Assembly (NCBI RefSeq): GCF_900113245.1
Contig: NZ_FOOQ01000001.1
Location: 248,001 to 312,000, forward strand
Length of the DNA: 64,000 nucleotides
Reading direction: 5' to 3'
Source: Halopelagius inordinatus
GTDB lineage: Archaea; Halobacteriota; Halobacteria; Halobacteriales; Haloferacaceae
Every line of letters begins with the position of its first letter. Positions within the stretch are counted from its first letter, which is position 1. Of this stretch, positions 6,676 to 48,618 are shown one piece after another. Both the position numbers and the translations under genes were made by a program. Under the pieces are notes generated by a model. The model was given only the letters and a program-made list of their open reading frames with translations, had not been told where the DNA came from and made no database searches.

Positions 6676-7344
6676 TTACGCGTCGGTTTCGGTGCCGACT
6701 TCGGCCGCGTCGGCGTCCGGGGCCTCTTCGGGCGCGCGAGCGATGGTCGTGATGGCGCGCGGACTGCCGGGGCGGGCCTGTTGGATGTGGTGTTCTATCT
6801 CGACGAACCCGGCCTCCTCGAACATCCGCTGGGCCTCGTGTTCGTCGTAGAACAGCATGATGGTGTCTGCGAGCTTCTGGAACAGCGTCGTCTTCGGGTA
6901 GTCCGGCCCGACGACGAGGACGCGGTGGCCGGGCTTGACGACGCGGCGGAACTCCCGAAGCGCCGCGACGGGGTTCGGCCAGTACTCGATAGAGCCCGAC
7001 GACCAGACGGCGTCGAAGGAGTCGTCCGAAAAGGGGAGACGCTCGGCGTCGCCGCGGTAGAAGCGCACGTCGTCGTTCTTCCCGAACTTGGCGAACGCCT
7101 TCTCTAGCTGGTGTGCGCTCTGGTCGAGTCCGTGGACGTCGCCGGTGTGCTGGAGGAGCCCTTCGGTCGCGAATCCGGTTCCACACCCCACGTCCAACAC
7201 CCGGTCGTCGGACCGGAGGGCCAAGAGTTCGAGCGCTTCGTCGCGCATCTCCTCGTTCCAGATGAACGGGTTGATGCGGTCGTACACCTTCGAGAGGTAT
7301 TTGTAGAACAGACGGGCCCGTGACTTGTCTTCGAGGACTCCCAT
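6676..7344 (-). CDS. SAM-dependent methyltransferase, class I, quinone-methyltransferase-like
   Basis: This soluble methyltransferase has about 222 residues. Motif I is VLDVGCGTGFATEG, followed by an acidic motif II (GLDQSAHQLEKA), RFYRGDAERLPFSDDSFD and WSSGSIEYWPNP. The overall pattern is like the MPBQ/MSBQ and menaquinone methyltransferases, and haloarchaea use menaquinone, so a quinone substrate is plausible but unproven. The start at 7344 (MGVLEDKSRARLFYKYLS) begins where homology starts; a longer upstream frame would overlap the atp promoter. The tail is acidic. The gene is divergent from atpH, which fits a respiratory role. Confidence 0.85.
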   Translation of the reverse strand: MGVLEDKSRARLFYKYLSKVYDRINPFIWNEEMRDEALELLALRSDDRVLDVGCGTGFATEGLLQHTGDVHGLDQSAHQLEKAFAKFGKNDDVRFYRGDAERLPFSDDSFDAVWSSGSIEYWPNPVAALREFRRVVKPGHRVLVVGPDYPKTTLFQKLADTIMLFYDEHEAQRMFEEAGFVEIEHHIQQARPGSPRAITTIARAPEEAPDADAAEVGTETDA

Positions 7345-7480
7345 CGCCACAGAGTTCGAAGCCGTCTCCCATAACGGTGCGGATTCCGCGTCGGTCACGG
7401 CCGTAAGAGAGTTCAGTCGGCGCACCGTCACCGGTCCCCCGCCGAAACCGCCCGCGTCGGCGGGCGTTTTCCGCAAACAC

Positions 7481-7487
7481 CTTATAC
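7481..7487 (+). promoter_or_regulatory. TATA box of the ATP synthase operon
   Basis: The sequence CTTATAC lies about 34 nt before the atpH start. Transcription would begin about 8 nt upstream of the ATG, giving a very short leader. No other strong box occurs in the 174-nt gap shared with the divergent methyltransferase gene. Confidence 0.55.
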
Positions 7488-7518
7488 GCCGGTACTGCAA
7501 CTTTTCAGTGATACGAGT

Positions 7519-7851
7519 ATGCCGAGACCAGAGGTTCTCGAACGGATCAAGACTGCCGAGAACGAGGCCGACGACATCGTCGCAGAGGCCGAGGCCGACC
7601 GCGAGGAGCGAATCGCGGAGGCGCGACGCGAGGCAGAAGAGATCCGTCAACAGGCCGAGGAAGAGGCGCGTGAGTACGAGGAGGAACGTCTCGACGACGC
7701 TCGCTCAGACATCGAGGAAGAGCGCGCGGAGATCCTAGAGCGCGGCGAGAGAGCGCGCAAGGAACTCGTCGAAGACGCACAGGACAACGCTGACGAGGCG
7801 GTCGAATACGCCATCGAACAGTTCGAGGAGGCGGTGCATGCTCAGACCTGA
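7519..7851 (+). CDS. atpH: A-type ATP synthase subunit H
   Basis: This is the peripheral-stalk subunit H of the archaeal A-type ATP synthase, which pairs with subunit E to form the stator. Its 110 residues are almost entirely one charged coiled coil (Glu/Arg/Ala heptads from residue 5 to 100), as expected for the family. It is the first gene of the atp operon and overlaps atpI by 14 nt, so the two are translationally coupled. Confidence 0.93.
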   Translation: MPRPEVLERIKTAENEADDIVAEAEADREERIAEARREAEEIRQQAEEEAREYEEERLDDARSDIEEERAEILERGERARKELVEDAQDNADEAVEYAIEQFEEAVHAQT

Positions 7852-10069
7852 GCAGATGAGCAAAGTCTCCGTGACCGGGTCCAAACGCGTGATGGACCCC
7901 GTCATCGAGACGGTCCACGACCTGAACCTGCTACACGTCACCGAGTACGACGACACGTGGGACGGGTTCGACCCCGGCGACCCCGCAGAGGGTGCCGAGG
8001 ACGCCTCCGAGAAACTCGTCACCGTCCGATCGCTCGAGAGCATGCTCGACGTCTCAGGCGACGACGCGGGGCCGACTCGCATCGTCACGGACGAGGCGCT
8101 CGAAGCCGACCTCGACGAGATTCGCGAGCAGGTCAACGAACTCGACGACGAACGACAGGACCTCCGTCAGGAACTCCGCGATGTCGAAGACCGCATCGAC
8201 GCGATGTCGCCGTTCGTCGACCTTGGAATCGACCTCGACCTGCTGTCCGGGTACGACAGCCTGCAGGTCGCGGTCGGAGAGGGTCGAAGAGAGACCGTCG
8301 AACGCGCTCTCGTCGACGCCGACGACATCCGGGCGTACGAGGTCTTTTCGGGTGACAAGACGCTCGCCGTCTTCGCCCGTCCCTCGAAGCACGCCGACGG
8401 CGCGGCGCTCTCGGACGTTCTCGTCGGCGCCGACTTCGTCGCCATGGACGTGCCGGACGCAGACAGGAGTCCCGAAGACTACGTCCGCGACCTCGAACAC
8501 GAGGCCGAGCAGATTCGCTCGGAACTGGAATCCGTCGAAGAGGAACTCGAACGGCTGAAACTCGACGCCGCGGGCTTTCTGCTCGCCGCAGAAGAGAAGC
8601 TCTCGATAGACGTCCAAAAGACCGAAGCGCCGCTCTCTTTCGCGACGACGGAGAACGCGTTCATCGCCGAGGGGTGGATTCCCTCCGAGCGATACACCGA
8701 GTTCGCCGCGTCGCTGAAAGACGCCGTCGGCGACCACGTGCAGGTCGAAGAACTCGAACGCGCGTCGTTCAGTTCCGACGGCAACGACCACGTCCGCGAG
8801 GACATCCCCGCGGACCCCGGCGGCGGCGGTCCGGGAACCCCCTCGGTCACGGACGGTGGAGACGGCGCAGACGCCGACGCGCGCGCCGACGGCGGCAGCG
8901 CGGTCGTGATGGAGAACGACGAACCGCCGACGGTGCAGAACAACCCCGGTGCGGTCCGCCCGTTCGAGATTCTCGTCAACGCCGTCAGCAAGCCGAGCTA
9001 CTTCGAACTCGACCCGACGGTCATCCTGTTTCTGACGTTCCCGCTTCTGTTCGGGTTCATGATCGGTGACCTCGGGTACGGTCTCGTCTACATGGGAATC
9101 GGCTACTTCCTGTGGAGTCGGTACGACGACCGCCCGGCGTTCAAGAGCATGGGCGGGGTCACCCTCGCCGCGGGGCTGTTCACGCTCATCTTCGGTATCC
9201 TGTACGGCGAGATATTCGGGCTCCACCTCATCTCGACGTACTTCTGGGAGGGTCTCCTCGGTATGGGGCACCCGCCGATAGAGAAGGGTCTCTCGCCCGC
9301 AACCTCCGAGTGGGCCCTCGGGTGGCTCGTCGTGAGCCTGCTCGTCGGTATCGTTCACCTCAACATCGGGTACATCTTCGGCTTCGTCGAGATGTACGAA
9401 CTTCACGACCTGAAGCACGCAGTCTACGAGAAGGGGTCGTGGCTCCTGATGCTGAACGGACTGTGGGTGTGGATCTTCTCGGACGTGACCCGCGGGACCG
9501 CCCCGGACTTCATGTTCACCACGTTCACGTCCGACGGCGTTCTCCCGCTCGGCTTCGCCGGGTTCCCGGAACTCGTCGGGTGGGCCGGACTCGCCGTCTT
9601 CTTCGTCGGACTCGCCCTCCTCGCGGTGGGCGAACCCATCGAAGCCGTCGAGTTCCTCAACGTGCTCGTGAACGTCCTCTCGTACACGCGTGTCGCGGCG
9701 GTGCTGTTGGCGAAGGCGGGGATGGCCTTCACGGTCAATCTCCTGTTCTTCGGCGTGTACACCGTCCCGGGCGAACACGGCGAGGAGTGGCACTTCATGC
9801 TCAACTACGGGCCGGAGTACGTCCTCAGCCACTACGACGAGGCGTCCATCATGTTCGGCGGCCTCGTCCACGGCGACGCGGCGACCATCCTCATCGGTCT
9901 GCTCGTCCTCGTCCTCGGGCACCTCCTCGTGCTCGCACTCGGCGTGACGAGCGCCGGTCTGCAGGCCGTGCGTCTCGAGTACGTGGAGTTCTTCAACAAG
10001 TTCTTCCAAGGCGGCGGCCGCGAGTACGAACCGTTCGGCTACGAGCGCCGCTACACCACCGAAGACTGA
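7838..10069 (+). CDS. atpI: A-type ATP synthase subunit I (a-subunit)
   Basis: This membrane stator subunit provides the proton half-channels facing the K ring. Its 743 residues comprise a cytoplasmic N-terminal half (1-360, coiled coils at about 85-125 and 215-245) and a C-terminal half with about seven to eight membrane helices (about 390-715). A Gly/Asp/Ala-rich acidic linker (about 325-360) joins the two halves and looks like a halophile-specific insertion. The SYTRVAAVLLAKAGMA stretch should contain the essential membrane arginine. A 196-nt gap with its own signals separates it from atpK. Confidence 0.95.
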   Translation: MLRPEQMSKVSVTGSKRVMDPVIETVHDLNLLHVTEYDDTWDGFDPGDPAEGAEDASEKLVTVRSLESMLDVSGDDAGPTRIVTDEALEADLDEIREQVNELDDERQDLRQELRDVEDRIDAMSPFVDLGIDLDLLSGYDSLQVAVGEGRRETVERALVDADDIRAYEVFSGDKTLAVFARPSKHADGAALSDVLVGADFVAMDVPDADRSPEDYVRDLEHEAEQIRSELESVEEELERLKLDAAGFLLAAEEKLSIDVQKTEAPLSFATTENAFIAEGWIPSERYTEFAASLKDAVGDHVQVEELERASFSSDGNDHVREDIPADPGGGGPGTPSVTDGGDGADADARADGGSAVVMENDEPPTVQNNPGAVRPFEILVNAVSKPSYFELDPTVILFLTFPLLFGFMIGDLGYGLVYMGIGYFLWSRYDDRPAFKSMGGVTLAAGLFTLIFGILYGEIFGLHLISTYFWEGLLGMGHPPIEKGLSPATSEWALGWLVVSLLVGIVHLNIGYIFGFVEMYELHDLKHAVYEKGSWLLMLNGLWVWIFSDVTRGTAPDFMFTTFTSDGVLPLGFAGFPELVGWAGLAVFFVGLALLAVGEPIEAVEFLNVLVNVLSYTRVAAVLLAKAGMAFTVNLLFFGVYTVPGEHGEEWHFMLNYGPEYVLSHYDEASIMFGGLVHGDAATILIGLLVLVLGHLLVLALGVTSAGLQAVRLEYVEFFNKFFQGGGREYEPFGYERRYTTED

Positions 10070-10129
10070 GACGCGCCCCTCCCTCTCGGCCTTCGCTATC
10101 TCTCCGTCCGCGAGCCGCGCCACTCGATA

Positions 10130-10164
10130 ACTAGTTTCGCTCTATTCGGCCGAATTCGGGCCGA
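10130..10164 (+). promoter_or_regulatory. Candidate control elements upstream of atpK
   Basis: The atpI-atpK gap holds ACTAGTT (10130-10136), identical to the core of the Bat activator site seen before bop. It also holds a near-tandem ATTCGGCCGA / ATTCGGGCCGA (10144-10164), whose first half is a 12-bp palindrome. Both lie 35-70 nt upstream of a TATA-like box for atpK. A functional role is inferred only from position and symmetry. Confidence 0.3.
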
Positions 10165-10195
10165 TACGCCGGGCTACGGCGAAGCGGTTTGGGAA

Positions 10196-10203
10196 CCTTT
10201 ATG
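10196..10203 (+). promoter_or_regulatory. Internal TATA box for atpK
   Basis: CCTTTATG lies about 66 nt before the atpK start, which predicts a start site near 10226 and a 5' leader of about 40 nt. An extra promoter here would raise the level of the multicopy K subunit relative to the other subunits. Confidence 0.5.
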
Positions 10204-10265
10204 AGGTGTGTCTGTCCACATACGCACGTTCGGAGACGACAAACCGTCACAGAGCATACTCAACT

Positions 10266-10511
10266 ATGTCAGCACTAACACTCCTACAGGAAGCTCAGGC
10301 AGCTGCCCCGGCTCTCGAAGCACCCGCCGCCGCCGCTCTCGCGGTCGGTTTGGCCGCGTTCGGCGCGGGATACGCGGAGCGCGGCATCGGTGCCGCCGCG
10401 ATGGGTGCCATCGCAGAAGACGACGACCTCTTCGTCAACGGTCTCATTCTGACCGTTCTTCCGGAGACGCTCGTCATTCTGGCACTCGTCGTCGTGTTCC
10501 TGGTCTCGTAA
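10266..10511 (+). CDS. atpK: A-type ATP synthase subunit K (proteolipid ring, c-subunit)
   Basis: This 81-residue proteolipid forms the rotating ring. It has two membrane helices, one rich in Gly/Ala (about 20-50) and one at 55-80. Glu67 in LPETLVILALV is the expected ion-carrying carboxylate. A single two-helix hairpin means a canonical one-site K subunit rather than a fused form. The start at 10266 (MSALTLLQ) was chosen because upstream in-frame codons encode unrelated polar residues. Confidence 0.93.
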   Translation: MSALTLLQEAQAAAPALEAPAAAALAVGLAAFGAGYAERGIGAAAMGAIAEDDDLFVNGLILTVLPETLVILALVVVFLVS

Positions 10512-10534
10512 GCACCATCCCACCCTTTCCATCA

Positions 10535-11116
10535 ATGAGTTTGGATAACGTCGTCGAAGATATACGAGGCGAAGCACGCGCGCGTGCGGAGGAAATTCGC
10601 GAGGAGGGCGAGCGCCGCGCCGCTGAGATCATCGAGGAGGCCGAGGCGGACGCCGCGGAACTCCTCGAAACACGAGAGGCGGACGTCGAACGCCAGATCG
10701 AACAGGAGCGCGAGCAGTCGCTCTCCGGCGCGAAGTTGGAGGCGAAACAAGAACGCCTCGCCGCCCGGCGCGACGTCCTCGAAGACGTCCGGAGCCGAGT
10801 CGAGGACGAACTCGCCTCGCTCTCGGGCGACCGCCGCGAAGAACTGACTCGCACGCTCCTCGACGCCGCGGCCGACGAGTTCGACGACAGCGACGACGTC
10901 GTCGTCTACGGCCGCGCGGACGACGCCGCCTTGCTCGAAGACGTCCTTACGGATTACGACGGCTTCAGCTACGGAGGCGAGCACGACTGCCTCGGCGGCG
11001 TCGTCGTCGAGAGCGAGTCCTCGCGCGTCAGAGTGAACAACACGTTCGACTCCATCCTCGAGGGCGTCTGGGAGGACAACCTCAAGGAAGTGAGCACCCG
11101 ACTGTTCGACCAATGA
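10535..11116 (+). CDS. atpE: A-type ATP synthase subunit E
   Basis: This stator subunit forms the peripheral stalk with H and caps the A3B3 head. It has 193 residues: a long N-terminal coiled coil (about 1-105, Glu/Arg/Ala-rich) followed by a globular alpha/beta domain (about 110-190), as in known subunit E. The start MSLDNVVEDIRGEARARAEE follows atpK by 23 nt. Its end overlaps the atpC start by 4 nt (ATGA). Confidence 0.93.
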   Translation: MSLDNVVEDIRGEARARAEEIREEGERRAAEIIEEAEADAAELLETREADVERQIEQEREQSLSGAKLEAKQERLAARRDVLEDVRSRVEDELASLSGDRREELTRTLLDAAADEFDDSDDVVVYGRADDAALLEDVLTDYDGFSYGGEHDCLGGVVVESESSRVRVNNTFDSILEGVWEDNLKEVSTRLFDQ

Positions 11117-12159
11117 GTGTATCCGGCGGTTCCAATCCGGAGTACGTGACCGCTCGCGTCAGGGCGCGACAGAGCGCGCTGTACAGCGAGGAGGACTACC
11201 GCAAGCTGGTTCGGATGGGACCGGCCGAAATCGCCCGGTTCATGGAGGAGTCGGAGTACGAAACCGAGATCAACGCGCTCGGTTCCCGCTACTCGGGGGT
11301 CGACCTCATCGAGTACGCGCTGAACCGAAATCTCGCAAAGCAGTTCGACGACATCCTCGACTGGGCGGAAGGCCGCCTGTACGACCTCATCGCGCGCTAC
11401 CTCCGGAAGTACGACGCGTGGAACGTCAAGACGGTCATCCGGGGGCTCTACTCGGACGCCGACCGCGACGATATCGCGGACGACCTCATCCGCGCGGGTG
11501 AGTTCTCCGAGGCGTTCCTCGACAGACTGCTCGACTCGAACAGCATCGAAGACGTCGTCGAGCGACTTCGAGGGACGATATTCGACGCCGGTCTCGACGA
11601 GGCGTACGCGGACTACGAGGAGACGGACGTCCTCGTTCCGCTCGAAAACGCCATCGACCGCGCGTACTACGAGACGCTGCTCGGGAACCTCTCGTCGAAC
11701 GAGAAGACCCGACAGTACCTCGACTACCTCGAAGCCGAGATAGACTTCCGCAACGCGCGGAACGCGCTCCGACTCGCTCGAAGCGGGGCGGACATCGACC
11801 CCTCCGAGTACTATATCAGTGGCGGGGGTCTATTCTCGGCGTCGGAGCTGACGACGCTCGCGCAGAACCCCGACGAGTTGGTTTCGAGGATTCGCGACTC
11901 GGAGTACGGCGACGACCTCTCGGCTGCGCTCGACGAACTCGACGAGGCCGGTACCCTCCTCGGGTTCGAACGCGCCCTCGACGTCGCGCTCCTCGAGAAG
12001 GCCCGCGGGATGGGGAGCGTGTTCCCCCTCTCGGTCGGTCCGATCATCGCCTACATCCTGCGCAAAGAGCAGGAGGTGGACAACATCCGCGCCATCGCCC
12101 GAGGACGCGAGGCCGGTCTCTCCGAGGACGAGATCGAATCGGAGCTGGTCATCCTATGA
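11113..12159 (+). CDS. atpC: A-type ATP synthase subunit C
   Basis: This is the funnel-shaped subunit that connects the central rotor stalk (D and F) to the K ring. Its 348 residues match the family. It shows the internally repeated helical region, with FMEESEYETEI near the start and the conserved RKEQEVDNIRAIARG near the C-terminus. It overlaps both neighbours by 4 nt (atpE before, atpF after). Confidence 0.94.
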   Translation: MSVSGGSNPEYVTARVRARQSALYSEEDYRKLVRMGPAEIARFMEESEYETEINALGSRYSGVDLIEYALNRNLAKQFDDILDWAEGRLYDLIARYLRKYDAWNVKTVIRGLYSDADRDDIADDLIRAGEFSEAFLDRLLDSNSIEDVVERLRGTIFDAGLDEAYADYEETDVLVPLENAIDRAYYETLLGNLSSNEKTRQYLDYLEAEIDFRNARNALRLARSGADIDPSEYYISGGGLFSASELTTLAQNPDELVSRIRDSEYGDDLSAALDELDEAGTLLGFERALDVALLEKARGMGSVFPLSVGPIIAYILRKEQEVDNIRAIARGREAGLSEDEIESELVIL

Positions 12160-41105: not shown

Positions 41106-41251
41106 CCCCGGTGGCGGGGAGGCCGATAGTCTGTCTCTCTCGGTCGCGGCCGTCTCTCGCGGGGAACGTTACCGTGGGCGTTTATGTCCCCCCTGATAGA
41201 ACTACCTGCAACGTCGGTCGGACGCTCTTTCGACCCGGCGGTCACACACTC

Positions 41252-43597
41252 ATGACGACGGCGCTGTACGTTTCGGGTGACGACGAGCGGAGACGGTCGA
41301 TAGCGGCGCAACTCCGAGACGCCGCAGACGAGATTGTCGTGCGCGAGGCGACGCCGGACGGTCTGACGAACGGTCTCGCCGGTGCCGACTGCGTCGTCGT
41401 CGATATCGTCGCGACGGAACTGTCGCACGCCCGCGTTCGCGACTCGGGCTATCGGGGTCCGACTATCGCGTACGGCCCGGAGTCGTACGACGCACTCGAA
41501 CGGCGGACCCGAGACGGCTTCACGGACGTCGTCCGCGAATCGGACGCCGGTCCCGCCGTTCTCGCGGACCGAATCGCCCGTCACGCCGCCGCCGGGGCCG
41601 ACTCGGAGTCGTCCGGTCAGGACCGCGCGCGCGAAGAGACTCTCACCCGCCTCCACGAGACGAACCGCGAGTTGCTCCGGGCCGAAGACACCGCAGACGT
41701 CGCCGAGATAACCGTCCGAACGGCGAGCGAGGTACTCGAACTCGACGTCGCGGTGTTCGGGGCGTACGACCCCGACGCCCGCAGTATCGTCCCCGTCGAG
41801 GCGTCGGAGGCGGCGCGGGAGTTGGTACCCGAGTTGACGACCCGGTCGTACGGACCGGAGACGGGCGCTTACGACCTGTTCGACGCGGGCGACTCGCGAC
41901 TGTTCGAGGACGCGGGCGAACGATTCGGCACGTCCGAACCCCTCGGACCGACCATCGTCGTCCCCCTCGGCCGTCACGGACTGCTCTTGGTCGGGGACGC
42001 GGACACGGAGCGACGGACCATCCCCCCGGAGGCACTCGACTTGACCCGTCTGCTCGCGGCGAACGCGGAGACGGCCCTCGACCGGGCAGAACGCGAGGCG
42101 GCGCTCAGAGCCGAACGCGACCGCATCGCCGTTCTCTTTCGGAACACGAGCGACGCCATCGTAGACGTCGAGTACGTCGGCGGCGACCCCGTGGTCAGAA
42201 GCACGAACCCCGCGTTCGAGTCGGTCTTCGGCTACGAGGAGTCGCACGTTCGCGGAGAGAACCTCGACGACGTTATCGTGTCGTCTGACGACCGAGAGAC
42301 GGCGGAACACTACAACCGGGACGCCGTCGGGGGCGAACGCATCGAACGCGAGGTGCGTCGGGAGACGGCCGACGGGACGCGGGACTTTCTCCTCCGGGCG
42401 GTTCCGCTGGACCCCGACGGCGGGACGAACCGGGTCTACGGTATCTACACCGACATCACGGAGCGAAAACGCCACGAGCGAACGCTGAACAGTCTCCACG
42501 AGACGGCCCGGCAACTGATGCGCGCCGAGACGCCGAAAGGGGTGGCCGAGGTGGCGGTCGACGACATCGAAGACATACTGGGGTACCCGCTTTACAGCAT
42601 CCGTCTGTACGACGAGGAGGCCGACGAACTCGCGTTGGTGGCGGCGTCGGACCGGACGTTCGAGGCGTTGGGCGAACGACCCTCTTTCCCCCGGGGTGAC
42701 GGCGTCGTCTGGCGGACGTTCGAGTCCGGCGACCCCGCCGTCTTCGACTCCGTCGCGGAGATAGACGAGGCTTACGCCCGGTCCGGTATCGGCTCCGTGA
42801 TGTACGTTCCACTCGGCGACCACGGCGTCCTCTCGTTCGGCGTCTTCGAACCCGAGACGTTCGACGAGTCGGACATGCATCTCACGAACCTGCTCGCGGC
42901 CACAGTCGAGGCGGCTCTCGACCGCGCGGAACGGACGCAACTGCTCCGCTCGCGCGAGGCAGAACTCGAACGACAGAACGACCGCTTAGAGGAGTTCGCG
43001 AGCGTCGTCAGCCACGACCTCAGAAACCCGCTCTCGGTCGCACGCGGCTATCTCGAACTCGCGAACGACGCTTGCGACTCCCCGGAGACCGACGAGTACT
43101 TCGAGTGCATCGAACGCGCACACGAGCGAATGGCGAGGCTCATCTCGGACCTGCTCTCTTTGGCCCGGCAGGGACACACCGTCGGCGAGACGGAACAGGC
43201 TCCCGTGGGCGAACTCGCAGAACGCTCGTGGGGCGTCATCACCTCCGGAGACGCCGAACTCCGCGTGGCGGACGCCCCGACGGTCGAAGCCGACCCCGAA
43301 CGCCTCACGACGATTCTCGAAAACCTGTTTCGGAACTCGGTCGAACACGGCGGCGACGCCGTCACGGTTCGCGTGGGTGCTCTCGACGACGGCGACGGGT
43401 TCTTCGTGGCGGACGACGGCGTCGGAATCCCAGAGAGCGACCGCGAGGACGTCTTCGACCGGGGGTTCTCGACCGGTGACGACGGAACCGGGTTCGGTCT
43501 GGGTATCGTCCGCAGTATCGTAGACGCCCACGACTGGGACGTGGTGTTGACCGAGAGCGAAACCGGCGGCACGAGATTCGAGATACGGACCGAGTGA
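41252..43597 (+). CDS. Sensor histidine kinase with GAF-PAS-GAF input
   Basis: This soluble 781-residue sensor kinase has a receiver-like N-terminus (1-115) without a clear phosphoacceptor, a GAF domain (about 130-285), a PAS domain (about 295-410), a second GAF domain (about 415-560), HisKA with the phospho-histidine in FASVVSHDLRNPLSVA (about 585-600) and an HATPase domain (about 675-780: ENLFRNSVEHG, VADDGVGIP, GTGFGLGIV). No membrane helix is seen, so it senses an internal signal. No dedicated response regulator is next to it. The start at 41252 follows a CACACTC spacer; upstream frame is not protein-like. Confidence 0.9.
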   Translation: MTTALYVSGDDERRRSIAAQLRDAADEIVVREATPDGLTNGLAGADCVVVDIVATELSHARVRDSGYRGPTIAYGPESYDALERRTRDGFTDVVRESDAGPAVLADRIARHAAAGADSESSGQDRAREETLTRLHETNRELLRAEDTADVAEITVRTASEVLELDVAVFGAYDPDARSIVPVEASEAARELVPELTTRSYGPETGAYDLFDAGDSRLFEDAGERFGTSEPLGPTIVVPLGRHGLLLVGDADTERRTIPPEALDLTRLLAANAETALDRAEREAALRAERDRIAVLFRNTSDAIVDVEYVGGDPVVRSTNPAFESVFGYEESHVRGENLDDVIVSSDDRETAEHYNRDAVGGERIEREVRRETADGTRDFLLRAVPLDPDGGTNRVYGIYTDITERKRHERTLNSLHETARQLMRAETPKGVAEVAVDDIEDILGYPLYSIRLYDEEADELALVAASDRTFEALGERPSFPRGDGVVWRTFESGDPAVFDSVAEIDEAYARSGIGSVMYVPLGDHGVLSFGVFEPETFDESDMHLTNLLAATVEAALDRAERTQLLRSREAELERQNDRLEEFASVVSHDLRNPLSVARGYLELANDACDSPETDEYFECIERAHERMARLISDLLSLARQGHTVGETEQAPVGELAERSWGVITSGDAELRVADAPTVEADPERLTTILENLFRNSVEHGGDAVTVRVGALDDGDGFFVADDGVGIPESDREDVFDRGFSTGDDGTGFGLGIVRSIVDAHDWDVVLTESETGGTRFEIRTE

Positions 43598-43641
43598 ACG
43601 GGTACGGTCGCTCGGAGCGGTTGCGTCCACTCGGCGATGAA

Positions 43642-43747
43642 ACGCCTCGCTGGGGGACTGAGATTCAGAGAAAGCGCCCGAGGCGGGAGTTCACCGAGCA
43701 AAGCGAGGTGAACGTCGGCGAGACAGCGTCTCGCCGGGATTTGAACC
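43642..43747. repeat. 106-bp direct repeat beside tRNA-Asp, copy A
   Basis: This stretch is identical to 46264-46369 except for one base. It lies in the 3' flank of the first tRNA-Asp gene. It contains a 17-bp copy of the tRNA-Asp 3' end (43672-43688), a long imperfect hairpin with GTTCACC/GGTGAAC arms, and a perfect 8-bp hairpin GGCGAGAC/GTCTCGCC (43717-43735). A second T-arm-like fragment (GGGATTTGAACC) closes it. A vestige of tRNA-targeted integration, or a duplicated tRNA cassette, are the likely explanations. Confidence 0.85.
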
Positions 43748-43873
43748 CCAGTCGCTCTGCTCGCTTCGCTCGCGTCGCTCCCTGCTTCGAATCCCGCGAT
43801 AGTCGCACAGCGATTCTCGGTCGTATCGCTCGGCGACGAGACGCCTCGCTCGAAAGTACGAGAATCGAAGAAG

Positions 43874-43946
43874 CGCCCGAGGCGGGATTTGAACCCGCGT
43901 CACGACCGTGACAGGGTCGTATGATGGGCCACTACACCACCCGGGC
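43874..43946 (-). tRNA. tRNA-Asp (anticodon GTC), copy 1
   Basis: This 73-nt tRNA folds with the acceptor stem GCCCGGG/CTCGGGC, discriminator G73, anticodon loop CTGTCAC with anticodon GTC, and T-arm GCGGGTTCAAATCCCGC. No CCA is encoded. It is identical to the second copy at 46486-46558. A CTTAAG box (43977-43982) lies about 33 nt before the 5' end. Confidence 0.95.
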
Positions 43947-44053
43947 ACGCTGCACTCGTTCTTTTCCGTAGTGCTTCTTAAGGCTTTTCAGTTCGACTCG
44001 TCGCCTCGCGTTCGCCGTGTTTCTTCCCGTCGGTGCCGCTTCGGGCGGTTCGC

Positions 44054-44707
44054 TCACCCCTGCATCAGGTTCATCACCTCGTCGGCGACGTCCGGTTCCA
44101 CGGCGACGACGTAACGCTTCCCCGGAGTGAGAGTCGTCTCTGACCCGGCGATACGTTCTCCCTCCTCGGTGGAGACGACGAGCGTCCCCTTCGGGAACCT
44201 GACGTCGGTGAGTTGCTTCTTCGCCGCCGGAGCGCCCTCGCCGACGCGAATCAGCATCACGTCTATCGCTCCGACCAAATCCGACAGCGTCTGCACGTCG
44301 CTCCCGATGATTTCGTTCGCCGCCAACCGGGCGCCCGCGCGTTCGGGAAACACGACGGCGTCGACGAACCGAGTGTACGTCTCTCCGGTCGTCCGTTCGA
44401 TTCGAGCGACGGTTCGGACGTCCGGCGAGAGTTCCTTCGCGGCCATACAGACCGCCAGATTCACTCCCGTCTCGCCGGTCAGCGCCGCGATGGCGTCGGC
44501 GTTCCGGACGTCCGCTTGTTCGATGATGCCCGGGTTCGTCGCGTCGCCTTCGATGACCGTCGCCATCCACTCGTCGCCGATGTCGGACGCCACTCGCTCG
44601 TCCCGTTCGATTATCGTCACGTCGTGTCCGCGGTCGGCGAGCAGTTCGGCGGTCTGGAACCCGACGCGCCCGCCGCCCGCGACGATTACGCTCTTGTGTG
44701 ATGTCAT
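44054..44707 (-). CDS. TrkA-type RCK regulatory protein paired with an APC permease
   Basis: This 217-residue cytoplasmic protein has a TrkA-N Rossmann domain (about 5-130, VIVAGGGRVGFQTAELLADRG) and a TrkA-C ligand domain (about 140-215). Such subunits gate a membrane partner in response to NAD(H), ATP or other ligands. Here the gene directly follows, by 3 nt, an amino acid/polyamine-type permease and no TrkH is present, so its partner is probably that permease. K+ uptake is the usual role but is not assured here. Confidence 0.85.
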   Translation of the reverse strand: MTSHKSVIVAGGGRVGFQTAELLADRGHDVTIIERDERVASDIGDEWMATVIEGDATNPGIIEQADVRNADAIAALTGETGVNLAVCMAAKELSPDVRTVARIERTTGETYTRFVDAVVFPERAGARLAANEIIGSDVQTLSDLVGAIDVMLIRVGEGAPAAKKQLTDVRFPKGTLVVSTEEGERIAGSETTLTPGKRYVVAVEPDVADEVMNLMQG

Positions 44708-44710
44708 GTG

Positions 44711-46150
44711 TCAGTCGTCCTCGGCAGTTGCTTCTGCATCCGTTCTCGTCTCTTCGGGCGAACGAACCACTTCGAGCGCGAAGTAGAGGAGTCCCCCCAG
44801 TAGAATCCAGCCCACGCTCAGTCCCAACGCCAGCGGGTCGGTCCGGACGAGATACCGGACGAGTACGCCGGTCAGGACCAAGTTGAGCACCACACCGACG
44901 ACCGGCGGAACGGGGTAAAACGGCATCTCGTACGGTCGGTTCATGTTCGGCCGTTCCCGTCGAAGCCTGATTGCGGCGACGTTGACGACGACGAACGACA
45001 GGAGAAAGAACAGACTCGACATGTTCCCGGCGCTCTTCGTCGGCAACGCCACCGACCCGAGCATCACCACCGCACTCACGAGGATGGCGACGAACGGCGT
45101 CCCGTAGCGGTGGTGGATGTGACCGAACGAGGGGAGTAACTGCCCCTCCCGTCCCATCGAGAAGGCGATCCGCGACGACGCGATGACGACGGCGTTCAGC
45201 GCCGTCAGCGTCGAGAAGACGGCGCCGAAGACGATGATCGCACCGCCGTTTTGGATCACGGGGAGGCCGGTGGGCATGAACTCCGTGGCCGCTTGGGCGA
45301 TTCCGGCCTCCCCGGCCGCCGCCAGTCCCCCCGCCCCGAGAGTGCCGACGGCCACGGTGACGACTGCGAGGTAGACGATTACGGTCGCGGCCAGACTCAC
45401 GAAGATCGCTCTCGGGATGTTCCGGCGGGGGTTCTTCACCTCTTCTGTCACCGTCGTGATAAGGTCGTACCCCTCGAACGCGATGAACGTCAGTCCCATC
45501 GCCGGCAGTACGGCGAACGCGCCCCGAGACTCCGGAAACAGCGGTTGGAACTCCGCGGTGGAGAACATCGGGGACGCGAGGCCGAACGCCACGAACACCA
45601 ACAGAATCGTGACCTTCGTCGCCGTGAAGACAGTCTCGATGCTCCCGCTTGCGGCCGTCGAGACGGCGTTCAACGCGACCAACAGAAACACGGCCACGAA
45701 CGACAAGAGCACCGATACGCCCAGGCCGACGTCGACGACCGGAAGCGCGACAGCACCGACCTGTCCCGGCGGCGGAACGATACCGTAGACGTGCAACAAC
45801 TCGATGAAGTTCGGCGCGAATCCGAGCGCGTACAGCGCGCCGGCGATCATGTACGCGAACCAGAGCATCCACCCCATGAGGAACGACGAGACGTCGCCGA
45901 ATATCTCCCGAACGAAGGCGTATCCGCCGCCGCTCTTCGGAATCGAGGCCGCCAGTTCGGCGTAGGAGAGTCCGGTGAACGCCGTGACGACGCCGTTCAG
46001 TCCGAAGACGACGATAGCGGCCGGACCGGCGACTTCGGCGGCTAACCCCGTCAGCACGAAGATACCCGCCCCTATCATCGCTCCCATGCCGATCATCGTC
46101 GCGTCGAGGAGGCCGAGTTCGGCCTCTGGGGCGCGCTCTCGACTGCTCAT
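44711..46150 (-). CDS. APC-superfamily amino acid/cation permease
   Basis: This 479-residue permease has 12 membrane helices in the LeuT-like fold. Signatures are the N-terminal GLLDATMIGMGAMIGAGIFVLTG and PAMGLTFIAFEGYDLITTVTEEVKNPRRN in the middle. The C-terminus is short and acidic, with no UspA domain. Substrate cannot be read directly; the RCK partner gene next to it suggests regulation by nucleotide and perhaps K+ transport, as in bacterial KimA. It lies between the two tRNA-Asp cassettes. Confidence 0.88.
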   Translation of the reverse strand: MSSRERAPEAELGLLDATMIGMGAMIGAGIFVLTGLAAEVAGPAAIVVFGLNGVVTAFTGLSYAELAASIPKSGGGYAFVREIFGDVSSFLMGWMLWFAYMIAGALYALGFAPNFIELLHVYGIVPPPGQVGAVALPVVDVGLGVSVLLSFVAVFLLVALNAVSTAASGSIETVFTATKVTILLVFVAFGLASPMFSTAEFQPLFPESRGAFAVLPAMGLTFIAFEGYDLITTVTEEVKNPRRNIPRAIFVSLAATVIVYLAVVTVAVGTLGAGGLAAAGEAGIAQAATEFMPTGLPVIQNGGAIIVFGAVFSTLTALNAVVIASSRIAFSMGREGQLLPSFGHIHHRYGTPFVAILVSAVVMLGSVALPTKSAGNMSSLFFLLSFVVVNVAAIRLRRERPNMNRPYEMPFYPVPPVVGVVLNLVLTGVLVRYLVRTDPLALGLSVGWILLGGLLYFALEVVRSPEETRTDAEATAEDD

Positions 46151-46263
46151 GGACCCTCCGAACCTCGGGCACGACCCAAGTCATTACGCGGAGGGATTAA
46201 TATGTCGGGCAACTCCGGAGAACCGACGCGGTCGTCGGATCCCGGAATGCACCCGGCGAGAAG

Positions 46264-46369
46264 ACGCCTCGCTGGGGGACTGAGATTCAGAGAAAGCGCT
46301 CGAGGCGGGAGTTCACCGAGCAAAGCGAGGTGAACGTCGGCGAGACAGCGTCTCGCCGGGATTTGAACC
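46264..46369. repeat. 106-bp direct repeat beside tRNA-Asp, copy B
   Basis: This is the second copy of the repeat at 43642-43747, with 105 of 106 bases identical, 2,622 bp away in the same orientation. The single difference (CGCTCGAGG for CGCCCGAGG) falls in the tRNA-3'-end-like part. Together with copy A it fills most of the 335-nt gap between the permease and the second tRNA. The remainder (46370-46485) is a diverged continuation with a plus-strand T-arm-like fragment and no gene. Confidence 0.85.
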
Positions 46370-46485
46370 TCGGTCGCTCGCTTCACTCGCTCCCTGTTTC
46401 AAATCCCTTCGTAACCGTTCGTACGAACCGACTGGCGTTCGCTCAGCGACGAGACGCTTCGCTCGGCGGTCAGGTTCCAGAAGAA

Positions 46486-46558
46486 CGCCCGAGGCGGGAT
46501 TTGAACCCGCGTCACGACCGTGACAGGGTCGTATGATGGGCCACTACACCACCCGGGC
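46486..46558 (-). tRNA. tRNA-Asp (anticodon GTC), copy 2
   Basis: This gene is identical over 73 nt to the tRNA at 43874-43946, with the same GTC anticodon and G73 discriminator. It probably uses the promoter box at 46585-46594. No CCA is encoded. It lies 267 nt upstream of rpoH, on the opposite strand. Confidence 0.95.
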
Positions 46559-46584
46559 TGGCTCCACTCATTCGTAGCCCGGTG

Positions 46585-46594
46585 TTATAAATAA
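46585..46594 (-). promoter_or_regulatory. TATA box of tRNA-Asp copy 2
   Basis: TTATAAATAA (TTATTTATAA on the minus strand) is centred about 31 nt before the tRNA 5' end and is one of the most AT-rich stretches of the window. It fits strong tRNA transcription. Confidence 0.55.
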
Positions 46595-46752
46595 GGCTTA
46601 TCATATCGACGCCGCGTGTGACACGATACCGCGAGTCCGCCGGAAAGCATTTATTCGGGACAGACAATGAGTCCAAGTAACACGAGCGGTCGTACGAGCG
46701 CGATTTCGCGCCCGTGCCGATGAGCGGTGCTTTTCGAGTCCAGTTGGCAAGC

Positions 46753-46758
46753 GTTAAA
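46753..46758 (+). promoter_or_regulatory. TATA box of the RNA polymerase operon
   Basis: GTTAAA lies about 70 nt before rpoH and predicts a start near 46783 with a leader of about 43 nt. A weaker box, CATTTATTC, occurs about 100 nt further upstream, so more than one start site is possible. Confidence 0.4.
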
Positions 46759-46825
46759 TGCCTGCTCACCCAACAAGGCTGTAGTATCCCGTGAGAACTT
46801 CTTCCCAAACCCACACCAACTATCC

Positions 46826-47053
46826 ATGGTAGACGTAAGCCAACACGAGCTGGTGCCAGAGCACACGCTCCTCGAAGAGGACGAGATAGAGGAGGTGCTG
46901 GCGGAGTACGACGCCAGCCGCACGGACCTCCCGAAGATCAAACGGAAAGACAAAGCGTTGCCCGACGACGCGGACGTCGGCGACGTCGTGAAAATCGTTC
47001 GTGACTCACGAACGACAGACAAAGCGGTCACGTACCGACTGGTGATCGAATGA
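46826..47053 (+). CDS. rpoH: RNA polymerase subunit H (Rpb5 C-terminal domain)
   Basis: This 75-residue subunit corresponds to the C-terminal half of eukaryotic Rpb5 and helps hold the lower jaw of RNA polymerase. The motif [19 protein letters not shown] at the start and [20 protein letters not shown] at the end are typical. It is the first gene of the rpo operon and overlaps rpoB2 by 4 nt. Confidence 0.95.
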
Positions 47054-48618
47054 ATCGAGAGGACCGACGCGTCGTATCCCGAGAGTACTTCTCCGAAGAA
47101 CGGCTCGCAGAACACCACTTCCGCTCGTTCAACGCGTTCCTCGAACGCGGCATGCAGGAAGTCGTAGACGAGAAAGAGACCGTCGATACGGACATCGGCG
47201 ACAAAGAAGGCGAGGAACCCGTCTACGTCGAACTGGGTGACGTGCGCGTGGAGACGCCCCGCGTCCGCGAGGCGGACGGCTCCGAGGAACTGCTGTTCCC
47301 GCAGGAAGCGCGCCTCCGGAACATCACCTACGCCGCGCCGGTGTTCATGGAGATGTCCATCGTCCGCGGCGGCGAAGAGGAAGAGGAAGTCGTCGTCGAC
47401 ACCACCGAGACGAAGGTGGGCCGCATGCCCATCATGGTCGGCTCGACGAAATGTAACATCGCGGGTCTCTCCGACGAGGAACTCGTCGAAATCGGCGAGG
47501 ACCCCGTAGACCCCGGCGGCTACTTCATCGTCAACGGCTCAGAGCGCGTCCTCATGACCTCCGAGGACCTCGCGCCCAACAAGATTCTCGCCGAGTACGA
47601 CACGAAGTACGGCGACGAGATACAGGTCGCAAAGACGTTCTCTCAGCGCCGCGGCTACCGAGCGCTCGTCCTCTGTGAGCGCAACCGCGAGGGTATCCTC
47701 GAAGTGTCGTTCCCCTCCGTCTCGGGCAGCGTCAACTTCGTCACCCTCGTTCGCGCTCTCGGACTCGAATCCGACGAGGAGATCGTCCACCGCGTCTCCG
47801 ACGACCCCGAGGTCGTCAAGTTCATGCTCGAGAACTTAGAGGAGGCCGAAGTCCAGACCGAAGAGGAGGCCATAGAGAGCCTCGGGAAGCGCGTCGCCGG
47901 CGGTCAGGGTAAGAACTACCAGCTCAAGCGCGCGAACTACGTCATCGACCGCTACCTGCTTCCGCACCTCCACGAGGAGGGCGTCGAAGAGGAGGAAGTC
48001 CGCATCAACAAGGCGTTCTACCTCTGCCGCATGGCGGAAGCGTGCTTCGAACTTGCGCTTCAGCGCCGCGACTCCGACGACAAAGACCACTACGCGAACA
48101 AGCGTCTCAAGGTCTCCGGCGACCTGATGAAGGACCTGTTCCGGACGGCGCTCAACAAGCTCGCGCGCGACGTGAAGTACCAGCTCGAACGTGCGAACAT
48201 GCGTAACCGTCAGCTGACCGTCAACACCGTCGTCCGTTCGGACGTACTCACGGAGCGTCTCGAACACCCCATCGCGACCGGAAACTGGGTCGGCGGTCGG
48301 TCGGGCGTCTCGCAGTTGGTGGACCGCACCGACTACATGGGCGTTCTCTCTCACCTGCGCCGACTCCGCAGTCCGCTGTCGCGGAGTCAGCCGCACTTCG
48401 AGGCCCGCGACCTGCACGCGACCCAGTGGGGTCGCATCGGACCCTCGGAGACCCCCGAGGGACCGAACTGTGGGCTGGTGAAGAACTTCGCGCAAGCGAT
48501 GGAACTGTCGCAGAACGTCGAAGACGAACAGGAACTCAAACGAGAACTGGCGTCGATGGGCGTCGAGGGCATCCCCGGTATCGAACGCCCCGACACCACG
48601 ACGCCCGCGGACGACTGA
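47050..48618 (+). CDS. rpoB2: RNA polymerase subunit B''
   Basis: This is the N-terminal part of the second-largest RNA polymerase subunit, encoded separately as in halophiles and many methanogens. It has 522 residues and covers the protrusion, lobe and fork. The fork region THLRRLRSP-type segment ([20 protein letters not shown]) and [19 protein letters not shown] are intact. rpoB1 starts 3 nt later. Confidence 0.97.

What the first reader, a model, noticed from the sequence alone, without database searches (positions are those of the whole stretch)
43632..46600. Duplicated tRNA-Asp cassettes bracketing an APC permease and RCK gene pair
Two identical tRNA-Asp genes (43874-43946 and 46486-46558) in the same orientation each carry a 3' flank that is 105/106 identical. 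The flank contains a 17-bp copy of the tRNA 3' end plus T-arm fragments, as left by tRNA-targeted integration. The 2.5-kb segment between holds only the permease and RCK genes. This could be a relic integrative element that lost its integrase, or a tandem duplication. The repeats could still recombine and delete or amplify the segment.
Basis: partly seen in the sequence, partly recalled or inferred. Interest (0 to 1): 0.66.

Follow-up and report, generated by a model that had tools for sequence, protein, structure and literature searches.

The report
Hairpin-repeat tails on archaeal tRNA genes
The repeats beside these two aspartate-tRNA genes are not scars of one lost element but examples of short hairpin units that pile up behind tRNA genes across salt-loving archaea, each carrying a copy of the end of the tRNA gene it sits behind.

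Summary
In detail: two identical tRNA-Asp genes, a 105/106-identical flank block, tRNA 3'-end copies, and a permease-RCK pair between them. The relic-element reading is not supported. The only same-genus genome has the same rpoH-tRNA-tRNA-kinase order, each tRNA with its own conserved promoter, and no permease ortholog, so the tRNA pair is no product of the cargo's arrival. How the permease-RCK pair (common elsewhere, away from tRNA-Asp) got here is unresolved.

The flanks are the interesting part. In this genome and its sister, 42 of 91 tRNA genes carry a copy (at least 15/20) of their own 3' end downstream; upstream only three do, all tandem tRNA genes. Between gene and copy lie a first hairpin and a second one pairing an inverted T-arm with the copied T-arm, whose inner stem covaries and keeps tandem G.A mismatches. 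A covariance model matches 51 of 53 listed same-order genomes and only two others, weakly. Top hits lie 30-309 bp behind a tRNA in 27 of 29 loci. Two of five filled/empty comparisons, one at tRNA-A, cleanly show one unit sitting exactly at the tRNA 3' end. I propose site-specific accretion; the enzyme is unknown, and slippage plus gene conversion remains a serious rival.

The parts
46486..46558 (-). tRNA-Asp B (ortholog of tRNA1 of G001)
46580..46602 (-). promoter-like 5' sequence of tRNA-B, alike in G001 tRNA1
   Evidence: read
46408..46485 (-). first hairpin region (type W) of array B
   Evidence: 89% over 63 bp to a unit behind tRNA-Ser(GGA) in G001
46358..46407 (-). second hairpin (inverted T-arm, G.A stem, direct T-arm) of array B
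   Evidence: 72.5 bits; this sequence was a row of the model
46264..46369 (-). copy B of the 106-bp block, 105/106 identical to copy A
46297..46316 (-). displaced copy of the tRNA 3' end, 16/20
44711..46150 (-). APC amino-acid permease (cargo)
44054..44707 (-). RCK (TrkA-N/TrkA-C) protein (cargo)
43978..43991 (-). promoter-like 5' sequence of tRNA-A, alike in G001 tRNA2
   Evidence: read
43874..43946 (-). tRNA-Asp A (ortholog of tRNA2 of G001)
43675..43873 (-). 199-bp block between tRNA-A and the flank that adjoins tRNA2 in G001
43736..43795 (-). second hairpin of array A
   Evidence: 58.5 bits; this sequence was a row of the model
43642..43747 (-). copy A of the 106-bp block
43675..43694 (-). 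displaced copy of the tRNA 3' end, 17/20
43628..43674 (-). displaced flank (type Z), directly behind tRNA2 in G001
46826..47053 (+). rpoH, conserved neighbour (context)
41111..43597 (+). histidine kinase, conserved neighbour (context)
   Evidence: its end is also beside tRNA2 in G001 (read)

Best explanation
The two flanks are arrays of short tRNA-anchored hairpin units, a class found across Halobacteriales. A unit is about 60-200 bp: a pyrimidine-rich start, a first hairpin, then a second hairpin made of an inverted copy of the host tRNA's T-arm, a stem alternating two Watson-Crick pairs with tandem G.A mismatches, and a direct copy of the tRNA's T-arm plus 3' acceptor strand. Most likely the units are added by site-specific recombination at the T-loop/3' end of the tRNA gene. 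Each addition rebuilds the tRNA 3' end and pushes the older units downstream, where their tRNA-end copies decay; homologous exchange between units then shuffles, amplifies and homogenises them. The 106-bp block shared by both arrays is one such copied piece. The two tRNA-Asp genes are an older tandem pair; the permease-RCK pair lies between array B and the promoter of tRNA-A through a separate event. Shown: anatomy, distribution, covariation, independence of the tRNA pair from the cargo, two clean filled/empty sites. Inferred: the recombination step and its direction. Unknown: the enzyme and how the cargo arrived.
For: Own 3'-end copies (>=15/20 within 500 bp) downstream of 42 of 91 tRNA genes in G000+G001, 5 more at 13-14/20; upstream control 3 of 91, all tandem tRNA genes. 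Own end versus other tRNAs' ends 39/91 against 4/6096. Inverted T-arm matches its own tRNA at >=10/12 in 20 of 42, against 109 of 1142 for other tRNAs' arms. Covariation: 93.1% cells paired, 41 double-change cells against 8.9 in shuffles, score 0.330 against 0.152 and <=0.057 when slid; G.A columns kept in 19-25 of 26 rows. Model R1 hits 51 of 53 listed same-order genomes and, weakly, 2 others of 294. 27 of 29 top loci lie 30-309 bp behind a same-strand tRNA. In the tRNA loci of the two genomes 35 of 36 distinct strong hits are same-strand downstream, the 36th lies behind a tRNA copy 11.6 kb from its gene. Filled/empty: tRNA-A 41/50 versus 29/50, tRNA-Pro 44/50 versus 16/50. Order of unit types X, Y, Z differs between congeners at one tRNA-Asp. 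Type W occurs behind both tRNA-Asp and tRNA-Ser. tRNA pair without cargo in the sister.
Against: No recombinase was identified, and none is encoded in the units. Only 2 of 5 filled/empty comparisons were clean; the Lys pair went the other way (26/50 after the copy versus 36/50 directly after the tRNA) and two others did not align at the boundary. With one sister genome, gain in one and loss in the other cannot be told apart. Identical tandem units fit slippage or unequal crossing-over as well. For most tRNAs the best flank match in the sister genome is the same tRNA (23 of 34), so transfer between tRNA loci is the minority pattern. The larger insertions that I saw lack the T-arm hairpin at their ends, so the units are not simply their remnants. 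The outer stem of alignment A1 was partly selected for pairing.
Confidence: 0.6

Rival explanations
1. No dedicated recombination: tRNA-end copies left by old integrations or tRNA duplications multiply and shuffle by replication slippage, unequal crossing-over and gene conversion between tandem repeats, and hairpin-forming sequence is what survives.
For: Four 111-bp units with identical bodies behind one tRNA-Lys; the 105/106 block shared by the two neighbouring arrays; best sister match of a flank is usually the same tRNA, 23 of 34.
Against: One architecture with tRNA-specific arms behind ten tRNA types; covarying inner stem; neighbouring units with unrelated first hairpins in changing order; units shared between Asp and Ser tRNAs; clean boundary at the tRNA end in two cases.
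Confidence: 0.27
2. One reading: a relic integrative element carrying permease and RCK, bracketed by tRNA att sites, that lost its integrase.
For: Cargo absent from the sister genome; tRNA-end copies in both flanks.
Against: Both tRNA genes are complete, each with its own 5' sequence, and both are present without the cargo in G001; no tRNA-end copy on the RCK side; no integrase; the flanks are a general feature of tRNA genes.
Confidence: 0.04
3. The hairpins are selected as RNA: structured trailers of tRNA transcripts that affect termination, 3' processing or stability.
For: Covarying stems; strict same-strand downstream position.
Against: About half of the tRNA genes have no unit; units change between congeners; an RNA role does not explain direct copies of the acceptor strand.
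Confidence: 0.09

Closest known systems
Tyrosine-integrase elements integrated in archaeal tRNA genes (review PMC8371274, passages seen)
   Same: Insertion at tRNA genes; tandem integration at one locus is mentioned there. That the tRNA 3' end is repeated at the far side is stated for SSV1 in PMC3293823 (passages seen).
   Different: Units here are about 60-200 bp, encode nothing, carry an inverted T-arm hairpin, occur behind about half of all tRNA genes, and keep one architecture whatever the tRNA.
E. coli tyrT downstream repeats / RtT RNA (recalled; no match)
   Same: Tandem repeats behind a tRNA gene, each with a copy of the tRNA 3' end.
   Different: Recalled as a single locus; here about half of the tRNA genes, with an inverted T-arm and a covarying G.A stem.
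Integron cassette arrays with attC hairpins (recalled)
   Same: Array at a fixed anchor, units ending in a hairpin that could rebuild a double-stranded recombination core from one strand.
   Different: No genes in units, no integron integrase known here, the anchor is a tRNA gene and the hairpin arm copies that tRNA.
PATEs / IS605-related palindromic elements of Haloquadratum (PMC3119063, passages seen)
   Same: Short haloarchaeal palindromic elements.
   Different: Related there to IS605-type transposons; the passages I saw do not tie them to tRNA genes. Partial tRNA copies in that paper belong to prophages and islands.
REP / MITE-type short palindromic repeats (recalled)
   Same: Short, many copies, hairpin-forming.
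   Different: These units lie almost only in tRNA 3' flanks and carry host-gene-specific arms.

Membership tests
   Both tRNA genes complete with own 5' sequences; no partial copy on the RCK side
   Only permease and RCK recognised
   The one same-genus genome has two tRNA genes and no cargo
tRNA-anchored hairpin units (this report) | Copy of own tRNA 3' end downstream | tested here: met
   17/20 and 16/20
tRNA-anchored hairpin units (this report) | T-arm hairpin between tRNA and copy | tested here: met
   R1 58.5 and 72.5 bits; both sequences were rows of the model
tRNA-anchored hairpin units (this report) | Unit sits exactly at the tRNA 3' end relative to an empty relative | tested here: met
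   tRNA-A against G001 tRNA2; clean in 2 of 5 comparisons made
Integron cassette | Integron-type integrase acting on the array | not tested
   No search for such an integrase was made
Integron cassette | Genes carried in units | tested here: not met
   Units of about 60-200 bp, too short for ordinary genes
E. coli RtT repeats | Match to the Rfam family | tested here: not met
   No such match up to E 1 in 43000-47400

The most novel reading that the evidence does not exclude
A recombination system of Halobacteriales that uses tRNA genes as anchors for growing arrays of gene-less hairpin cassettes: each cassette folds as single-stranded DNA so that inverted and direct T-arm copies rebuild a double-stranded T-loop crossover site, and an unidentified recombinase inserts it next to the tRNA, newest first, in the manner of an integron but with the target's own sequence as the hairpin arm.
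Probability: 0.2. Interest if true: 0.88.

Novelty: new variant of a known kind. Interest (0 to 1): 0.68.

Why it matters
tRNA 3' ends are classic landing sites of archaeal mobile elements. A very common, gene-less, structured repeat that stacks at those ends and copies both orientations of its host gene's T-arm points to a recombination process not described in the papers I could search (ten searches, listed in the report). It would explain why tRNA flanks in haloarchaea are full of tRNA fragments that can be mistaken for prophage or island scars (as here), could supply decoy attachment sites for integrases, and may give a readable evolutionary record if the arrays grow at one end.

Tried and rejected
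Relic element with the tRNA genes as att sites: rejected on the sister genome. Codon use as a sign of foreign cargo: GC3 is ordinary; relative codon distance is raised (0.285 and 0.327, against 0.15-0.25 for neighbours apart from short rpoH at 0.55), inconclusive. Donor of the permease: identities up to 85% to many genera, no clear donor; no tree was built. Empty/filled tests at tRNA-Lys, C3:236398 and C1:176073: not clean. The pairing test on rows is biased because rows were chosen by that match; I rely on the unselected test. Scan of viral contigs: one contig, in which the unit follows a complete tRNA-Glu, so probably host DNA at a provirus edge. Rfam: nothing credible beyond tRNA. Literature: ten searches, none whose listing named such units; the library lacks most subscription papers and all preprints.

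Rows dropped before counts: I listed 36 distinct hits with 31.6 bits or more, leaving out hits seen twice through overlapping loci (one L213, one L149, one L252, one L197 and two L226 rows) and all hits under 31 bits, many of them the opposite strand of the same palindrome. A1 holds 26 rows: 22 of the 56, chosen by me for ordinary loop length, two of them with one to three more bases at the ends, plus the two window hairpins, one from L286 and one from L053. In one search the 221 unlisted no-match genomes are taken to lie outside the order because the list is sorted by kinship; the output does not say so. R1 was scored on at most 20 candidates per genome, so counts per genome are lower bounds. 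G036 (cut at a contig end) was left out, hence 14 genomes there.
Full report
WHAT WAS CHECKED. Two identical tRNA-Asp genes lie on the minus strand. Reading the minus strand, the order is: tRNA-B (46486-46558), its flank, permease, RCK, tRNA-A (43874-43946), its flank, then the end of a histidine kinase gene (41111-43597, plus strand); rpoH (46826-47053, plus strand) lies before tRNA-B. The 105/106 block is confirmed, as are the tRNA-end copies (17/20 and 16/20).

THE tRNA PAIR AND THE CARGO. The only other genome held for the genus, G001, has the same order rpoH - tRNA - tRNA - kinase, with 304 bp between the tRNA genes. Each tRNA has its own 5' sequence, different between the two genes but alike between the two genomes, so I take the two genes as one-to-one orthologs. 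G001 has no permease ortholog: its hits are 28-36% identical paralogs. In the family 68 of 170 genomes have a permease match at E <= 1e-150, while two or more tRNA-Asp genes are found in many genomes. The permease-RCK pair itself is common: by my reading RCK lies directly behind the permease in 69 of the 78 loci and in all 29 further loci. tRNA genes were found in 6 of those 78 loci, a tRNA-Asp only in L070, about 2.2 kb away, and in none of the 29. The cargo was gained here in or near this lineage, or lost in G001; its RCK side carries no tRNA-end copy.

THE FLANKS ARE A GENERAL FEATURE. I took the 46 and 45 RF00005 places of G000 and G001 with their flanks. 42 of 91 have at least 15 of the last 20 tRNA bases again within 500 bp downstream, 24 of them perfectly (a few of these are the end of a neighbouring tandem tRNA gene); 5 more have 13-14; upstream, 3 of 91, all next to a second tRNA gene. 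Within 300 bp, distances from tRNA end to copy are 44-206 bp, again 42 genes. Ends of other tRNAs almost never match (4 of 6096 tests against 39 of 91 for the own end). The space between starts with a pyrimidine-rich stretch, then a first hairpin, then an inverted T-arm, a short stem-loop, and the direct T-arm of the copy. The inverted arm follows the host tRNA: in the unselected test 20 of 42 match their own tRNA at 10-12 of 12, against 109 of 1142 for dissimilar tRNAs.

STRUCTURE. In 26 aligned hairpins the inner stem alternates two Watson-Crick pairs with tandem G.A mismatches and often ends in a G-N-A loop. Mismatch columns: G.A 25, A.G 25, G.A 22, A.G 19 of 26. Paired columns change on both sides (for example C-G 21, T-A 4, G-C 1). 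Over 17 pairs 93.1% of cells pair, against 82.5% in shuffles; double-change cells 41 against 8.9; slid versions reach at most 0.057 covariation against 0.330. The outer arm was partly selected for, the inner pairs were not. As single-stranded DNA six examples fold 3.0 to 6.9 standard deviations better than shuffles. That such G.A stems and G-N-A loops are especially stable in DNA is recalled, not tested.

DISTRIBUTION. Covariance model R1 over 294 genomes of the phylum: 53 with a match at E <= 0.001, of which 51 are the own genome or same-family or same-order genomes, in eight families; two same-order genomes without a match are listed; the two matches outside the order are weak (2.0e-4 and 9.5e-4). 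Of 29 top loci from 29 genomes 27 lie 30-309 bp downstream of a same-strand tRNA gene, of ten amino-acid types; 25 of the 27 carry 15-18 of 18 bases of that tRNA's end. In the tRNA loci of G000 and G001, where upstream and opposite-strand DNA was searched too, 35 of 36 distinct hits of 31.6 bits or more are same-strand downstream. The exception lies behind a 3'-end copy of tRNA-Glu 11.6 kb from that gene. A second displaced unit lies about 28 kb from its tRNA, beside an ORF (L286 6810-7844) that looks to me like a tyrosine integrase; no family search was run on it. In the window R1 finds just the two flanks of the finding as strong hits, both of which were in the model.

DYNAMICS. At tRNA-A the flank after the displaced copy matches the flank directly behind the orthologous tRNA in G001 (41 of 50; the flank directly behind tRNA-A only 29 of 50): one 199-bp block was added, or lost in the sister, exactly at the tRNA 3' end. 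The same holds at tRNA-Pro (C1:228812; 44 against 16 of 50; 137 bp). Three further comparisons were not clean, and at tRNA-Lys the result went the other way. Fourteen genomes of one other genus show three recurrent first-hairpin types, X, Y and Z, behind the same tRNA-Asp in different orders, mostly with tRNA-end copies at the junctions. Type W behind tRNA-B is 89% identical over 63 bp to a unit behind tRNA-Ser(GGA) in G001. Flank-to-flank similarity between different tRNAs is 195 pairs downstream-downstream against 24 mixed and 7 upstream-upstream (some pairs come from overlapping neighbouring loci). G146 has four 111-bp tandem units with identical bodies behind tRNA-Lys. Against free movement, the best sister match of a flank is usually the same tRNA (23 of 34 with any match).

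INTERPRETATION. The anatomy and the two clean sites favour addition of whole units at the tRNA 3' end, which restores the tRNA and displaces older units. Tyrosine recombinases that use tRNA genes are the known agents of such events in archaea (PMC8371274, passages seen), but they are known for moving far larger elements (recalled), and the larger insertions seen here lack the T-arm hairpin. So I leave the enzyme open. Slippage and gene conversion very probably act as well, and could be the whole story. The 106-bp block of the finding would be a piece copied between neighbouring arrays.

LITERATURE. PMC3119063 (passages seen) describes partial tRNA copies with prophages and islands in Haloquadratum, and IS605-related palindromic elements. 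PMC3293823 (passages seen) treats tRNA disruption in Caldiarchaeum and recounts the SSV1 case. None of the listings of the ten searches named units like these. A search for the stem motif in full texts gave one unrelated virus paper (listing only).

VERDICT. The given finding, a relic element around a permease and RCK pair, does not hold. What it stumbled on, tRNA-anchored hairpin arrays across Halobacteriales, is well supported as a pattern and open as to mechanism.

Noticed in passing
L274 (G001 C1:998111-1012900), tRNA at 1501-1575, copy just before 13183: A tRNA-Glu and a 3'-part copy of the same tRNA lie about 11.6 kb apart, with a hairpin unit directly beyond the copy: an insertion in front of an older unit.
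   Followed up: partly
L286 (G001 C1:34000-48000) 6810-7844, 10016-11161: Two ORFs that look like tyrosine integrases near the distal tRNA-end copy of an insertion of about 28 kb whose tRNA is at C1:68544-68616.
   Followed up: partly
L270 (G000 C1:1210000-1226000) around 8009-8058: A hairpin unit with no tRNA place near it, preceded by a T-arm/acceptor stretch: a decayed tRNA gene or a distal attachment site.
   Followed up: no
L332 (G146) 1274-1349 and downstream: Four 111-bp tandem units behind tRNA-Lys; end copies 14/14 in three and 13/14 in the fourth.
   Followed up: partly
L265 (G000 C1:434954-435026 and 435361-435433): Another doubled tRNA pair with tRNA-end copies between and behind the genes; G001 has the same doubling (C3:307207 and 307575).
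   Followed up: no
L175 (G134): Four tRNA-Asp genes in tandem beside rpoH, where most relatives seen have one to three.
   Followed up: no
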